Source: Comamonadaceae bacterium (GTDB lineage: Bacteria; Pseudomonadota; Gammaproteobacteria; Burkholderiales; Burkholderiaceae_C). From it: a stretch of DNA of 64,000 bases. Shown piece by piece: positions 1,527-29,641 of the stretch; positions within the stretch are counted from its first letter, which is position 1, and every line of letters starts with the position of its first letter. The translations under genes were made by a program, and so were the position numbers. The stretch covers positions 1-64,000 of the forward strand of contig CANKBG010000012.1 of NCBI GenBank assembly GCA_947479935.1. The letters run 5' to 3'. The notes beneath the pieces are model-generated. The model saw only the letters and a program-made list of their open reading frames with translations, searched no databases and was not told where the DNA came from.

Positions 1527-2042
1527 ATGTTGCAAACTCTTCAAATGAACGTCAATGGCCAAGCCATCTCTTTGAAAGTACGAAAAGAGAGCACAGCGCT
1601 TCAAACAATTCGCAATCAATTAGGCCTGACCGCCAGCCGATATGGGTGTGGTCAAGAGCAATGCGGGGCATGTCATGTTTTGTTGGATGGCCAATCAAAG
1701 CCAACATGCCAGTTGCCGACCGAGGCCTTAGTGGGACGAAGTATTGCCACACTTGAGTCTGCGAATCATCCTGAGTTGCCCAGCACACCTTTTTTAAAAG
1801 CACTTCAATCTGCATTCATTGCCGAGCAAGCCGCGCAGTGCGGATATTGCACAAGTGGTTTACTCATCAGCGCCACGGCCTTGTTGATGAATGCCAGTGA
1901 CACTGTGTCTGATCACCAAATTCGAGAGGCCTTAGAGCCACACCTTTGCCGCTGCGGCGCTCACAACCGCGTGCTAAAAGCTGTGAGAAAAGCGGCTCTG
2001 CAATGCGGTCTGAAAATTGCCAGCGCAGAGGTGTCTGTATGA
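1527..2042 (+). CDS. (2Fe-2S)-binding subunit of a xanthine dehydrogenase/isoquinoline 1-oxidoreductase-type molybdenum hydroxylase
   Basis: CGQEQCGACHVLLDG and CGYCTSG...LCRCGAHNR cysteine motifs; ATGA overlap with the next gene. Confidence 0.92.
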   Translation: MLQTLQMNVNGQAISLKVRKESTALQTIRNQLGLTASRYGCGQEQCGACHVLLDGQSKPTCQLPTEALVGRSIATLESANHPELPSTPFLKALQSAFIAEQAAQCGYCTSGLLISATALLMNASDTVSDHQIREALEPHLCRCGAHNRVLKAVRKAALQCGLKIASAEVSV

Positions 2043-4249
2043 ATCAGTTGTTGACCCTCTCCGTGAGTTTGAAAACCAATCCTTTATTAGGGCAATGGTT
2101 GCGTTTTGAGTCCAATGGCACAGTCACTGTGTTCACAGGCAAAGCAGAATTAGGCCAAGGCATCTTGCATGCTTTAAAGCTGATAGCGGCACATGAACTT
2201 GAATTACCAGTGTCCAAGGTTCAAACCGAAGCTGCAAACACAAAGCACAGCCCCGACGAAGGCATGACCTCTGGCAGCATGTCCGTCCAAGACTCAGGAT
2301 TGGCCATCAGGCAAGCGTGTGCACACGCTGCAAAGCTTTTAAAGGTAAACGCATGTCAGACTTACGCTGAACTTCATACGCGCATTGACCCCCTGTTACC
2401 CATCGATCTCACGGTGCCCACCAAGTCCACAGCAATGAACTTGATAGATGGTCGTGACGACCTCGAAGCGCTGGTGCATGGCAAACCCATCTATCTCCAC
2501 GACCTCGGAATTAATGTTGATCTGACCCCCATTAAAAACAATTGGGGTCAGAGCAACATTAATTTGGTGCATGGGCGGATGGTGAGGGGGCCTGGCTTGA
2601 GGTGTACGTTGCAAACGGATGGTTGGTTGGACGCTTTAGCGGCATTGCCAGAGGGTGCGCAGGCTTTTCGGGATGGCAGTTTGGTGGGCGTACTCGCGGG
2701 CACAGAAGAATTGGCAGAAAAGGCAGCAAGCAAGTTGCAGCGATTGCTAAAGTGGGATGTAGAGAGCTTGCCTGTTTGCCGCGAGGGTGGTGTGGATTTG
2801 TTTGAAGTTGCACCCGCGATGGACTCGCAGGTGTTTCATGAAGCGGGGCAGGCCATTGAAGGGGGCAAGGACGCCAAGGTTTACGAAGCGGTCTATTTCA
2901 GGCCCGCTTTGCACCATGGATCGATGGGGCCCAGTGTGGCAGTAGCCATGTGGAAATCTGATGAAGCAAACAGTGGCTTGAAAGTGTGGAGTCACACGCA
3001 AGGTATTTTCCCTTTGCGCAAAGATTTGGCTTTGGCGTTTGGCGTTGATGCGAAGCAGATTGAAGTTCAGCACATGCAAGGTGCAGGTTGCTATGGGCAC
3101 AACGGTGCAGACGATGTGGCTTATGACGCGGCGTGGCTGGCCAAACAGGTGCCTGGGCAAAGTGTGCGCGTGCAGTGGTCGCGTGAAGAAGAGATGCAGC
3201 AATCGCCGCTGGCGCCTGCGATGCGTGTCAAATTACAAGCAACGGTTGAAACAACAGGTTCTTCTTCAGCGCAGCAAATTTGTCTAAATCAAGAAATTAA
3301 TTTGGCAGAAGAGAACGAAAGAGCGTCAAGTCGAATTCGTTTCGTAACTTGGCAGCACGATGTGTGGAGCCAAGGCCACAGTTCACGTCCGGGGCGTGCA
3401 GCAACGCCAGCCTTTAAAGACAGTTGGCAAACCCAACAAAAATTTCCAGTGCTAGAACCCATCAATGTGGCTGCCGCAGCGGGCGCTGGCGCAGAGCGTA
3501 ATGCAGTTCCGCCTTATGTCAGCACGCATGTGAAAGTGAATGCGCATCGCTTGTTGGGCTTGCTTTTTAGAACCTCGGCCATGAGAGGTTTAGGCGCGCA
3601 TGCCAATGTGTTTGCCTGCGAAAGCTTCATGGATGAAATCGCTCATGACCAAGGTCTTGACCCGGTGGCATTTCGGTTAAGCAAGTTAGAGGACCCACGT
3701 GCCATCGCTGTGATCAAAACGCTGGCAGACCAAGTCAATTGGTTAGAGCGAAGACAAAGGGTGTCGCAAAAAGAGGGCAGGGGTTTGGGCATTGCCTACG
3801 CAAGATACAAAAGCAAAGGCGCTTATTGCGCCGTGGTGGCAGAAGTAGAAGTGACGCACCAAGTGAGTGTCCGCAAATTATGGGTGGTGGCCGACATTGG
3901 TGAAATCATCCATGCCGAAGGTGCCATCTCGCAATTGGAAGGCGGTGCCATTCAATCGACCAGTTGGGCTTTGAAAGAACAAGCGCACTGGGATTCAGAA
4001 AATATCACCAGCACCGATTGGGATGCCTACCCCATCTTGCGTTTCAGTGAAATACCAGAAGTCATGGTGAAACTTATGTCCGGCAATTCGCTAAATGCTG
4101 AAACACTCAATTCACCATTAGGTGCTGGAGAAGCCACACAAGGCCCGACAACCGCAGCCATTGCCAATGCAGTGTTTCATGCTGTGGGTGTGCGTGTTCG
4201 GCAGTTACCTATGACACCAGACAATTTAGCAAAAGCTGCGCTGGCGTAA
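2039..4249 (+). CDS. molybdopterin-binding large subunit of xanthine/aldehyde dehydrogenase-type hydroxylase (contains palindromic repeat 2509..2564)
   Basis: GKAELGQGILHALKLIAAHEL, SHTQGIF, SAMRGLGAHANVFACESFMDE and PLGAGEATQGP motifs; ATG overlaps the stop of the small subunit. Confidence 0.9.
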   Translation: MNQLLTLSVSLKTNPLLGQWLRFESNGTVTVFTGKAELGQGILHALKLIAAHELELPVSKVQTEAANTKHSPDEGMTSGSMSVQDSGLAIRQACAHAAKLLKVNACQTYAELHTRIDPLLPIDLTVPTKSTAMNLIDGRDDLEALVHGKPIYLHDLGINVDLTPIKNNWGQSNINLVHGRMVRGPGLRCTLQTDGWLDALAALPEGAQAFRDGSLVGVLAGTEELAEKAASKLQRLLKWDVESLPVCREGGVDLFEVAPAMDSQVFHEAGQAIEGGKDAKVYEAVYFRPALHHGSMGPSVAVAMWKSDEANSGLKVWSHTQGIFPLRKDLALAFGVDAKQIEVQHMQGAGCYGHNGADDVAYDAAWLAKQVPGQSVRVQWSREEEMQQSPLAPAMRVKLQATVETTGSSSAQQICLNQEINLAEENERASSRIRFVTWQHDVWSQGHSSRPGRAATPAFKDSWQTQQKFPVLEPINVAAAAGAGAERNAVPPYVSTHVKVNAHRLLGLLFRTSAMRGLGAHANVFACESFMDEIAHDQGLDPVAFRLSKLEDPRAIAVIKTLADQVNWLERRQRVSQKEGRGLGIAYARYKSKGAYCAVVAEVEVTHQVSVRKLWVVADIGEIIHAEGAISQLEGGAIQSTSWALKEQAHWDSENITSTDWDAYPILRFSEIPEVMVKLMSGNSLNAETLNSPLGAGEATQGPTTAAIANAVFHAVGVRVRQLPMTPDNLAKAALA
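2509..2564. repeat. RAYT-type palindromic repeat inserted in frame in the molybdenum hydroxylase gene
   Basis: AATTAATGTTGATCTGACCCCCATT-aaaaac-AATTGGGGTCAGAGCAACATTAATT; 25-nt arms with two mismatches; matches the inverted repeats flanking the transposase at 28831..29529. Confidence 0.88.
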
Positions 4250-27306: not shown

Positions 27307-27938
27307 ATCAAGCCTCTTCTTCACCGCCAAATTTGGATGTCAAACTTGTGGAACAAGATGTGGCAGGGGTGATGGTGAAAGACACCGAACGATGGCTAGA
27401 GCGTGCCGTGATTGGTTTGAATTTGTGCCCCTTTGCGAAGTCTGTTCAAGTGAAAGGGCAGGTGCATTACGCAGTCAGTGCCGCCAACCATTTAGAAACA
27501 CTTCGCGCAGATTTAAGCCATGAGTTGGAAGCGTTGGTGTCATTAGAGTCCTCCGTGCGCGACACGACTTTGTTGATCGTTCAAAACTTGTTGCAAGATT
27601 TTCACGATTACAACGACTTTTTGAATGTGGCCGATGATTGTTTGCGCGATTTAAACTTAGAGGGTGAAATTCAAATTGCCAGTTTTCATCCGCACTATCA
27701 ATTTGCGGGAACCACTGAAGACGATATCACTAATTTCACCAACCGATCGCCCTATCCCACTTTGCATTTAATTCGCGAGGCCAGCATTGACCGTGCAGTG
27801 GCTGCGTTTCCAGAAGCGGAAGCTATTTTTGAAGTCAACATGGCCACCATGACCCAGTTGGGGTTGGGCGGATGGCAAGCTTTGGAAGTGGGCGCTTCAT
27901 TGCCCCAGAATGAAACCGATGAAAAAAAATCCAGTTAA
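27303..27938 (+). CDS. DUF1415 family protein
   Basis: DTERWLERAVIGLNLCPFAKSV, IASFHPHYQFAGT..DITNFTNRSPYPTLHLIREASID; ATGA overlap with upstream gene. Confidence 0.85.
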   Translation: MNQASSSPPNLDVKLVEQDVAGVMVKDTERWLERAVIGLNLCPFAKSVQVKGQVHYAVSAANHLETLRADLSHELEALVSLESSVRDTTLLIVQNLLQDFHDYNDFLNVADDCLRDLNLEGEIQIASFHPHYQFAGTTEDDITNFTNRSPYPTLHLIREASIDRAVAAFPEAEAIFEVNMATMTQLGLGGWQALEVGASLPQNETDEKKSS

Positions 27939-28785
27939 TCCAAAACAGTCAGAGGTCAAGCCGCTGGATTTGGATTTGCGTCCAGGCCAATCCATTGAAC
28001 TGCTGAAAGAGTTGCACATCCTCACACGCGAAGGCAAGATCAACCAAGACTCTCGTCGCAAGTTGAAGCAGGTGCTGCACCTGTTTCAGTTCATTGAAAA
28101 AATATTAAAAGAGTTGACCGAGGAAGATCCTGCAAAAGGTTTGACGTTGGCTGACCACGGTGCTGGCAAGTCGTATTTGGGCTTCATTGTTTACGACTTG
28201 TTTTTCAAACAGCTTTCTCAAGGCTGCATTTACGGCATTGAAACCCGCTCAGATTTGGTCGAAGCCTCACGCGCCTTGGCGCAGCGTTTGAACTTTCAGC
28301 GCATGACTTTCTTGAACACATCTGTGTCAGAGTCTTTGCAGTCAGAACTGATGCCATCCGACATAGATGTGGTTACCGCACTTCATGCTTGCGACACCGC
28401 CACCGACGATGCCATTGCGTTTGGACTGATGAAAAAAGCCCGCGCGATGGTCTTGGTGCCCTGTTGCCAGGCCGAAGTAGCCGCCCAGTTGCGTCAAAAC
28501 AAAGCCCTCAACTTGTCTCGCACCCCCTTGGCCGAACTTTGGCGCCATCCCCTGCACACCCGAGAAATAGGCAGCCAACTGACCAACGTGCTGCGCTGCC
28601 TTTACCTCGAGTCCAAAGGCTATACCGTCACCGTCACCGAACTGGTCGGCTGGGAACACAGCATGAAAAACGAACTCATCCTGGCCCGCTTCACAGGCCG
28701 TCCCAAAGCCAATGCCGCCGACCACCTCCAAGCCCTCCTGACCGAATTTGGCCTCACCCAAACCCTTGCATCGCGTTACCCTTAA
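27910..28785 (+). CDS. class I SAM-dependent methyltransferase-like protein
   Basis: LADHGAGKSYLGFIVYDLF, DVVTALHACDTATDDAIAFG, MVLVPCCQAEVA. Stop codon lies inside the left RAYT inverted repeat. Confidence 0.82.
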   Translation: MKPMKKNPVNPKQSEVKPLDLDLRPGQSIELLKELHILTREGKINQDSRRKLKQVLHLFQFIEKILKELTEEDPAKGLTLADHGAGKSYLGFIVYDLFFKQLSQGCIYGIETRSDLVEASRALAQRLNFQRMTFLNTSVSESLQSELMPSDIDVVTALHACDTATDDAIAFGLMKKARAMVLVPCCQAEVAAQLRQNKALNLSRTPLAELWRHPLHTREIGSQLTNVLRCLYLESKGYTVTVTELVGWEHSMKNELILARFTGRPKANAADHLQALLTEFGLTQTLASRYP

Positions 28786-28808
28786 TTGGGGTCAGATCAA
28801 CATTAATT
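28782..28808. repeat. left inverted repeat of RAYT-like element
   Basis: TTAATTGGGGTCAGATCAACATTAATT. Confidence 0.88.
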
Positions 28809-28830: not shown

Positions 28831-29529
28831 ATGGCCCGTCAACCTCGCTTAGCGCTTCCCGGCTACCCGCATCATGTGATTCAGCGGGGGAATAATCGCC
28901 AGCCCATCGTGCAGGACGAGACCGATCGAAAGATGCTTTACAGCCTGTGGCTGGAGGAGTCGCAGCGGCACAAAGTGGCTGTGAACGCCTATGTTTTGCT
29001 CGACAATCACTTTCACATGTTGCTCACGCCGCCCGGCGAAGAGGCGATGTCATTGATGATGCAGTCGGTGGGACGGACGTATGTGCGCTACTTTAACAAG
29101 CGCCACAACAGAAGCGGTACGCTCTGGGAGGGGCGCTACAAATCCTCACTGATTGACTCTGAAGCCTACCTCCTAACCTGCATGTCATACATTGACTTGA
29201 ACCCGGTTAGATCAGGGCTGGCAGAGTCGGCTGAGGACTTTAACTGGTCTAGCTACAAGCACCTGATTGGCCTCAAACTGGACAAATTGGTGACGCCCCA
29301 TGCACTTTATTGGGGATTGGGTAACACGCCCTTTGCACGAGAGGCGGCCTATGCCTCATTTGTAGCGTCTGGCTTGTCTGCTTCCATTCAAAAAGATTTG
29401 ACGGAATCGGCTTTGAAAGGGCGTGTGGTGGGGCGCCCTGAATTTTTAAAGTCCTTAGAAAAGTCCACGCAACGTCAAATCCTGCCTCAAAAGGCCGGCC
29501 GACCGTTCAAAAAACCTCTGAAAAGCTAA
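28831..29529 (+). CDS. REP-associated tyrosine transposase (Y1_Tnp/TnpA_REP family)
   Basis: MARQPRLALPGYPHHVIQRGNNRQPI, HxH motif DNHFHML, YVRYFNKRHNRSGTLWEGRYKSSLIDSE, YIDLNPVRSGL. Confidence 0.95.
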   Translation: MARQPRLALPGYPHHVIQRGNNRQPIVQDETDRKMLYSLWLEESQRHKVAVNAYVLLDNHFHMLLTPPGEEAMSLMMQSVGRTYVRYFNKRHNRSGTLWEGRYKSSLIDSEAYLLTCMSYIDLNPVRSGLAESAEDFNWSSYKHLIGLKLDKLVTPHALYWGLGNTPFAREAAYASFVASGLSASIQKDLTESALKGRVVGRPEFLKSLEKSTQRQILPQKAGRPFKKPLKS

Positions 29530-29614: not shown

Positions 29615-29641
29615 AATTAATATTGATCTGACCCCAATTAA
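29615..29641. repeat. right inverted repeat of RAYT-like element
   Basis: AATTAATATTGATCTGACCCCAATTAA. Confidence 0.88.

What the first reader, a model, noticed from the sequence alone, without database searches (positions are those of the whole stretch)
2509..2564. RAYT-type palindrome inserted in frame inside a molybdenum hydroxylase gene
Seen directly: AATTAATGTTGATCTGACCCCCATT-aaaaac-AATTGGGGTCAGAGCAACATTAATT, a 25-nt-arm hairpin with two mismatches, inside the open frame of the large subunit. It reads G-I-N-V-D-L-T-P-I-K-N-N-W-G-Q-S-N-I-N-L with no stop, whereas the other two forward frames hit stops in the left arm (TGA, TAA). Members of this family normally go almost directly from the HDL-type segment to the (V/L)HGR segment, so about 15-19 residues look like repeat-encoded insertion (inference). 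The same sequence flanks the RAYT about 26 kb downstream, suggesting non-autonomous mobilisation into coding DNA that was tolerated, or domesticated, as a protein segment. The mRNA would also carry a very stable hairpin in mid-gene.
Basis: partly seen in the sequence, partly recalled or inferred. Interest (0 to 1): 0.78.

Follow-up and report, generated by a model that had tools for sequence, protein, structure and literature searches.

The report
Transposase repeat built into an enzyme
A short hairpin-forming repeat from a transposase family landed in frame inside an enzyme gene in the ancestor of a group of freshwater bacteria, has been kept and trimmed as part of the protein ever since, and, like copies in two DNA-repair genes, its DNA has hardly changed even where the genetic code would allow it.

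Summary
The palindrome at 2509-2564 is real (25-nt arms, 2 mismatches, 6-nt loop) and in frame in a molybdenum hydroxylase large-subunit gene (2039-4249) of a Limnohabitans-genus genome. Its arm is the terminal repeat of the RAYT at 28831-29529; this genome holds about 60 arm copies. All 11 gene copies of this clade (window plus ten orthologues, 76-89% identity) carry repeat-derived sequence here, in four lengths, always in frame. Orthologues at 60% identity, from species lacking this arm family, go from HDLQPE to GLLHGR: the insertion is net 15 codons. The same arms are in frame in uvrA, recB and a putative lipoprotein gene, with the arm's stop codons changed to sense codons. Intragenic REPs, including in uvrA and recB, were reported by Di Nocera et al. 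2013 (PMC3733652), so the kind is known. New here: a RAYT terminal repeat rather than a GTAG REP, persistence across many species, and synonymous sites in the arms almost frozen (recB 0-1 changes where 22-24 were expected; uvrA 3 vs 22; this gene 5 vs 18). Third codon positions in the arms change about as rarely as first and second. Something acts on DNA or RNA rather than the peptide; RAYT recognition is a guess.

The parts
2039..4249 (+). Large (molybdopterin) subunit of a xanthine dehydrogenase / IorB-like molybdenum hydroxylase, 736 aa, carrying the insertion at residues about 157-176
   Evidence: Pfam PF20256 MoCoBD_2 and PF02738 MoCoBD_1 above cut-off; NCBIfam relatives only below cut-off
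1527..2042 (+). [2Fe-2S] small subunit of the same enzyme, immediately upstream
   Evidence: PF01799 Fer2_2, PF00111 Fer2
2509..2564 (+). In-frame repeat-derived palindrome, 25-nt arms, 6-nt loop, arms divergent
   Evidence: arm family
2509..2533 (+). Left arm AATTAATGTTGATCTGACCCCCATT (encodes INVDLTPI), kept in all 11 gene copies except L011 (VDLTPI deleted) and partly diverged in L012 and L014
2540..2564 (-). Right arm (AATTGGGGTCAGAGCAACATTAATT on the + strand), kept in 5 of 11 copies (window, L010, L011, L012, L013), deleted in L014-L019
28784..28808 (-). Left terminal repeat of the RAYT locus, perfect match to the arm consensus
28831..29529 (+). RAYT (REP-associated tyrosine transposase) with HUH motif (NHFHM)
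   Evidence: NF047646 79.0 bits (cut-off 80), PF01797 45.5 bits (cut-off 23); single copy in the genome
29577..29595 (+). Degenerate arm GATCTGTCCCCAATTAATT (GGGGACAGATC on the other strand) between the RAYT and its right terminal repeat; also seen at RAYT loci of G002, G061, G069 and G037
29615..29639 (+). Right terminal repeat of the RAYT locus, 1 mismatch to the consensus

Best explanation
Residues about 157-176 of this enzyme are encoded by a dimer of RAYT terminal-repeat arms (a REP-like, TIR-type element) that entered the turn before the H-G-R motif (D-x-x-P-G-M-L-H-G-R in relatives) of a molybdenum hydroxylase gene in the ancestor of a Limnohabitans subgroup. It survived because the arm is open in that frame and the turn tolerates extra residues. 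Since then one arm or the other has been deleted repeatedly, always in multiples of three, so the protein is still under selection for an open frame (shown). The remaining arm sequence evolves like a DNA element and not like codons: synonymous sites are almost fixed (shown). My guess for the cause is that arms stay under nucleotide-level maintenance because the resident RAYT still recognises them (inferred, weak). Probabilities: in-frame insertion of a RAYT-associated arm, about 0.95; single ancestral insertion with later trimming, about 0.8; nucleotide-level rather than peptide-level conservation, about 0.85; RAYT recognition as its cause, about 0.35.
For: All 11 gene copies of the clade (76-89% identity) carry the segment in four length forms, all in frame; three orthologues at about 60% lack it. 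More distant homologues (42-49% identity, Comamonadaceae and Ancylobacter/Xanthobacter) also go directly D-x-x-P-G-M-x-H. The arm family occurs in 25 of 90 genus genomes, including all 11 with the insertion and none of the three insertion-lacking orthologue genomes, and is nearly absent from about 300 other genomes of the family. Same arms in frame in uvrA, recB and a putative lipoprotein gene, with stops removed: uvrA AAT TAA TGT TGA becomes AAT TTA TTT GGA, recB CAT TAA becomes CAT TGT, lipoprotein gene TAA and TGA become CAA and TCA. Synonymous changes, observed vs amino-acid-matched expectation: recB 0-1 vs 22-24; left arm here 5 vs 17.6, P = 0.001; uvrA 3 vs 22.1. Changes per codon position 1/2/3: recB arm 0.25/0.25/0.38 against 1.33/0.77/3.74 for the rest; same loss of periodicity in the other two genes. 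Left-arm-only forms are not one clade (AU p = 5e-6), so trimming recurred.
Against: No species with the gene but an empty site inside the insertion-bearing clade was found, so the exact insertion boundaries and any target duplication are unknown. The in-gene pair is divergent while nearly all other pairs are convergent, so it is not a straightforward copy of the common element. RAYT mobilisation is inferred from sequence identity of the ends only. The recurrent identical 24-nt deletion could also reflect recombination of alleles between species. The cause of the synonymous freeze is not identified: the uvrA insertion is patchy and looks exchanged between species, which also lowers divergence, and no binding or activity was tested. 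An arm at a similar position upstream of uvrA has 3-5 mismatches in some species, so not every arm is preserved.
Confidence: 0.82

Rival explanations
1. The arms inside genes are functional DNA or RNA sites (for the RAYT, a nucleoid or repair protein, or RNA pairing), and purifying selection on the nucleotides keeps them.
For: Third codon positions change no faster than first and second in three genes. Arms flanking the RAYT are equally slow: 0.04-0.20 changes per nt against 1.69 at RAYT third positions. In-gene departures from the consensus cluster at arm positions 8, 9 and 12, the positions most variable in intergenic copies apart from position 23. In recB an adjacent partial arm decays in several species while the full arm does not.
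Against: Six of 11 copies of the present gene lost the right arm without obvious harm; some species lack the uvrA arms; the arm upstream of uvrA decays in some species.
Confidence: 0.4
2. The arms are repeatedly refreshed by exchange with the many genomic copies (gene conversion or RAYT-driven replacement).
For: About 60 near-identical copies per genome; A/C variation at position 12 occurs both in genomic and in-gene arms.
Against: Gene-specific departures are preserved across species: three shared differences in the uvrA arm and TGT in recB, which refreshing with the majority sequence would erase. The L014 variant AATTCTGCTCTGACCCC has no other copy in that genome.
Confidence: 0.2
3. Independent insertions at the same target site in each species, so that every insertion is young.
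For: UvrA of G037 carries that species' own arm type (AATTGGGGTCAGATCCCAATT) in the same linker, so the same linker was hit more than once.
Against: In recB all 20 subgroup species with the gene recovered carry it at one position, strand and frame with the same stop-removing change and no empty site; here all copies share the same junctions.
Confidence: 0.1
4. The segment is an ordinary variable loop and the resemblance to the repeats is coincidence.
For: Molybdenum hydroxylases vary in loops.
Against: 25-nt arms matching the family at 0-1 mismatch on both sides, z = -8.3 hairpin, and co-occurrence with the repeat family.
Confidence: 0.01

Closest known systems
Intragenic REPs (Di Nocera et al. 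2013, PMC3733652)
   Same: Short palindromic repeats within ORFs, mostly dimers or groups encoding 20-30 residues, notably in uvrA and recB; REPs in recB of two Xanthomonas species lie at about the same site
   Different: Those are GTAG- or CGTC-tagged REPs; here the element is the terminal repeat of a RAYT without a GTAG tag. In the passages read, the paper does not describe conservation of an insertion over many species or slow synonymous change
TIRYT / TIRtron terminal repeats (same paper)
   Same: RAYT-like gene flanked by terminal inverted repeats with a GGGGWSAS motif (here GGGGTCAG), repeats dispersed as singles, dimers and clusters
   Different: The passages read report intragenic insertions for GTAG and CGTC repeats; I saw none for this TIR type
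Rickettsia palindromic elements (RPE)
   Same: Palindromic repeat inserted in frame into unrelated protein genes
   Different: Unrelated sequence (CGTC-tagged according to PMC3733652), alphaproteobacterial host, no dedicated transposase described there
MITEs of the IS200/IS605 superfamily
   Same: Other copies in this genome are short non-coding elements with the ends of an autonomous element
   Different: The in-gene copy is only two arms in divergent order, without the internal sequence; target duplication not seen or testable

Membership tests
TIRYT-associated terminal repeat (TIRtron) | Arm flanks a RAYT-like HUH transposase gene | tested here: met
   28784-28808 and 29615-29639 flank 28831-29529; same arrangement in at least 8 further species
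TIRYT-associated terminal repeat (TIRtron) | GGGGWSAS motif in the repeat | tested here: met
   GGGGTCAG in the arm (sequence; definition PMC3733652)
TIRYT-associated terminal repeat (TIRtron) | Dispersed repeat family in dimers or clusters | tested here: met
GTAG REP | GTAG tetranucleotide at one end | tested here: not met
   No GTAG in the arm consensus AATTAATGTTGATCTGACCCCAATT
RAYT | NCBIfam NF047646 above curated cut-off | tested here: inconclusive
   79.0 bits against a cut-off of 80; Pfam Y1_Tnp above its cut-off
RAYT | Single copy, vertically inherited | tested here: met
   One match in most of 30 genomes; about 25-29 kb from the hydroxylase gene in several species
RAYT | Binds and cleaves the repeat | not testable with these tools
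   needs biochemistry
Rickettsia palindromic element | CGTC tag / sequence relationship | tested here: not met
   No CGTC in the arm
Intragenic palindromic repeat (functional class) | In-frame insertion absent from homologues without the repeat family | tested here: met
MITE | Target-site duplication | tested here: inconclusive
   No close empty site exists to define the boundary

The most novel reading that the evidence does not exclude
Repeat arms lying inside protein-coding genes (recB, uvrA, this hydroxylase and a putative lipoprotein gene) are maintained as working DNA sites of a domesticated RAYT, so that parts of essential repair genes are constrained at the nucleotide level while the encoded peptide is free to vary.
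Probability: 0.3. Interest if true: 0.82.

Novelty: new variant of a known kind. Interest (0 to 1): 0.62.

Why it matters
It gives a clear case of a transposase repeat becoming protein sequence and staying through the divergence of many species. The synonymous freeze in three genes makes a concrete question testable: do RAYTs and their repeats have a cellular role that selects on DNA inside genes? The recurrence in uvrA and recB, reported by others with unrelated repeat families, suggests these genes are hit or kept preferentially.

Tried and rejected
Structure prediction of the subunit gave a poor model (mean pLDDT 54.5, segment 24-29), so the loop position was not modelled and no fold search was run. 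The idea that the L014 variant was copied from an abundant subfamily of its own genome was rejected: no other copy there. mRNA hairpin function as the reason for retention was set aside because 7 of 11 copies have lost all or most of one arm. Apparent in-ORF copies in L087 (924), L165, L172 and L180 were rejected as probably upstream of the real start or in doubtful frames; an EamA-type transporter in G010 (L173) carries an arm at its N-terminal end but may start downstream. A first control on RAYT flanks mixed strands and was redone on 9 correctly oriented loci. No paper linking Limnohabitans and RAYTs was found in the library.

Full report
WHAT IS THERE. The window belongs to a genome of the freshwater genus Limnohabitans (named relatives; own genome G000, 2.79 Mb, 79 contigs). 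Bases 2509-2564 form a palindrome with 25-nt arms, two mismatches and a 6-nt loop, the strongest close inverted repeat in the window, folding at -28.6 kcal/mol as RNA with z = -8.3. It lies inside the 736-codon gene 2039-4249, which together with the [2Fe-2S] subunit 1527-2042 makes a xanthine dehydrogenase / IorB-like molybdenum hydroxylase. The frame through the palindrome is the only forward one free of stops.

WHERE THE SEQUENCE COMES FROM. The arm consensus AATTAATGTTGATCTGACCCCAATT recurs at about 60 places in this genome and flanks the single RAYT gene 26 kb downstream. It occurs in 25 of 90 genomes of the genus and is practically absent from about 300 other genomes of the family. The RAYT is conserved in the genus; species outside the arm-bearing subgroup have a 59-63% identical RAYT with a related end, AATYGGGGTCAGATCCCAATTA. 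By the definitions of Di Nocera et al. (PMC3733652) this is a terminal repeat of a TIRYT (motif GGGGWSAS), not a GTAG REP.

INSERTION OR ORDINARY LOOP. All 11 gene copies of the clade (window plus ten orthologues at 76-89% identity) have repeat-derived residues here: full form (window, L010, L012, L013), left arm only (L015-L019, 24 nt shorter), a 33-nt shorter form (L014) and one lacking VDLTPI (L011), every difference a multiple of three. Three orthologues at 60% identity lack it (HDLQPE-GLLHGR), as do homologues at 42-49%. Net insertion: 15 codons. On a gene tree built without the segment, the left-arm-only forms are not one clade (AU p = 5e-6); the shared junctions of all full forms favour an ancestral full form with repeated loss of the right arm, though allele exchange between species is possible.

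NOT ALONE. The same arms are in frame in uvrA, recB and a putative lipoprotein gene of this genome. The arm contains TAA and TGA in the frames used there, and exactly these codons were changed: uvrA AAT TAA TGT TGA to AAT TTA TTT GGA, recB CAT TAA to CAT TGT, lipoprotein gene TAA and TGA to CAA and TCA. The recB arm is present in all 20 arm-bearing species of the subgroup in which the gene was recovered, decayed in one (G061), and absent from control species. The uvrA arms are patchy. In G037, a control species, the uvrA linker carries that species' own arm type, an independent hit of the same linker. Di Nocera et al. already reported REPs in uvrA and recB of other bacteria, so the phenomenon is known; this is a further and differently built case.

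FROZEN AT SYNONYMOUS SITES. With changes counted by parsimony on gene trees that exclude the arm, conserved-residue codons of the recB arm show 0-1 synonymous changes where 22-24 are expected for the same amino acids, and no other window of that size in the gene falls below 9. In the present gene the left arm shows 5 against 17.6 (P = 0.001) and the right arm 2 against 7 (P = 0.036, weak); in uvrA 3 against 22.1. An earlier pairwise measure agrees: the insertion is the lowest 19-codon window of the gene, 0.12 against a median of 0.37. The usual excess of third-position change is gone or much reduced in all three genes (recB arm 0.25/0.25/0.38 changes at positions 1/2/3 against 1.33/0.77/3.74 elsewhere). 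The arms beside the RAYT are equally slow. Changes that do occur in in-gene arms fall mostly at positions 8, 9 and 12, among the most variable positions of intergenic copies. These tests are approximate: parsimony undercounts, species are related, genes were chosen because arms were recognisable in G000, and the uvrA segment appears to move between species.

INTERPRETATION. That the segment is a RAYT-associated repeat that became protein sequence is well supported. That it is conserved as DNA or RNA and not as peptide follows from the codon-position pattern. Why is open. Refreshing from genomic copies is disfavoured because gene-specific differences persist across species; independent insertions are disfavoured for recB and the present gene because position, strand, frame and junctions are shared. 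Selection on a DNA site, for example one recognised by the RAYT, is my preferred guess but not shown.

LIMITS. Most genomes are draft MAGs; the in-gene census is not exhaustive; no structure of useful quality was obtained; no expression or binding data exist here.

Noticed in passing
158-184: Perfect CIRCE-type inverted repeat TTAGCACTC-N9-GAGTGCTAA at the left edge of the window, probably the HrcA site of a heat-shock operon read leftwards.
   Followed up: no
L091 (G000:C18:17000-21500), minus strand, about 1060-1230: uvrA carries a convergent pair of the same arms in frame (QLGSEPKKLDSPSSGSPNLFGSDPN) with a tandem duplication of the core; present in 8 of 13 compared arm-bearing species (half in G010), absent in close relatives, suggesting exchange between species.
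   Followed up: yes
L096 (G000:C4:54200-57200), about 1530-1570: recB carries an arm in frame (QLGSDQHC) with a partial tandem copy before it; frozen at synonymous sites over about 20 species.
   Followed up: yes
L103 (G000:C25:24500-27500), about 1495-1610: A putative lipoprotein-like gene carries a convergent arm pair in frame (KQLGSEQNK...NQLSSDPNK); shared with G088 and partly G053 only.
   Followed up: partly
L121 (G037 uvrA), about 1450-1480: A species with a different RAYT terminal repeat has its own arm type (AATTGGGGTCAGATCCCAATT) in the same UvrA linker.
   Followed up: partly
L105-L117, about 85-103 bases before the uvrA start: An arm sits at a conserved distance upstream of uvrA in most arm-bearing species; in G010, G039 and G049, where it is degenerate, an intact pair lies 50-90 bases further upstream.
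   Followed up: partly
28783-28788: The gene 27910-28785 upstream of the RAYT ends in the TAA at the edge of the RAYT left terminal repeat (CTTAATTGGGG), so the repeat supplies or abuts its stop codon.
   Followed up: no
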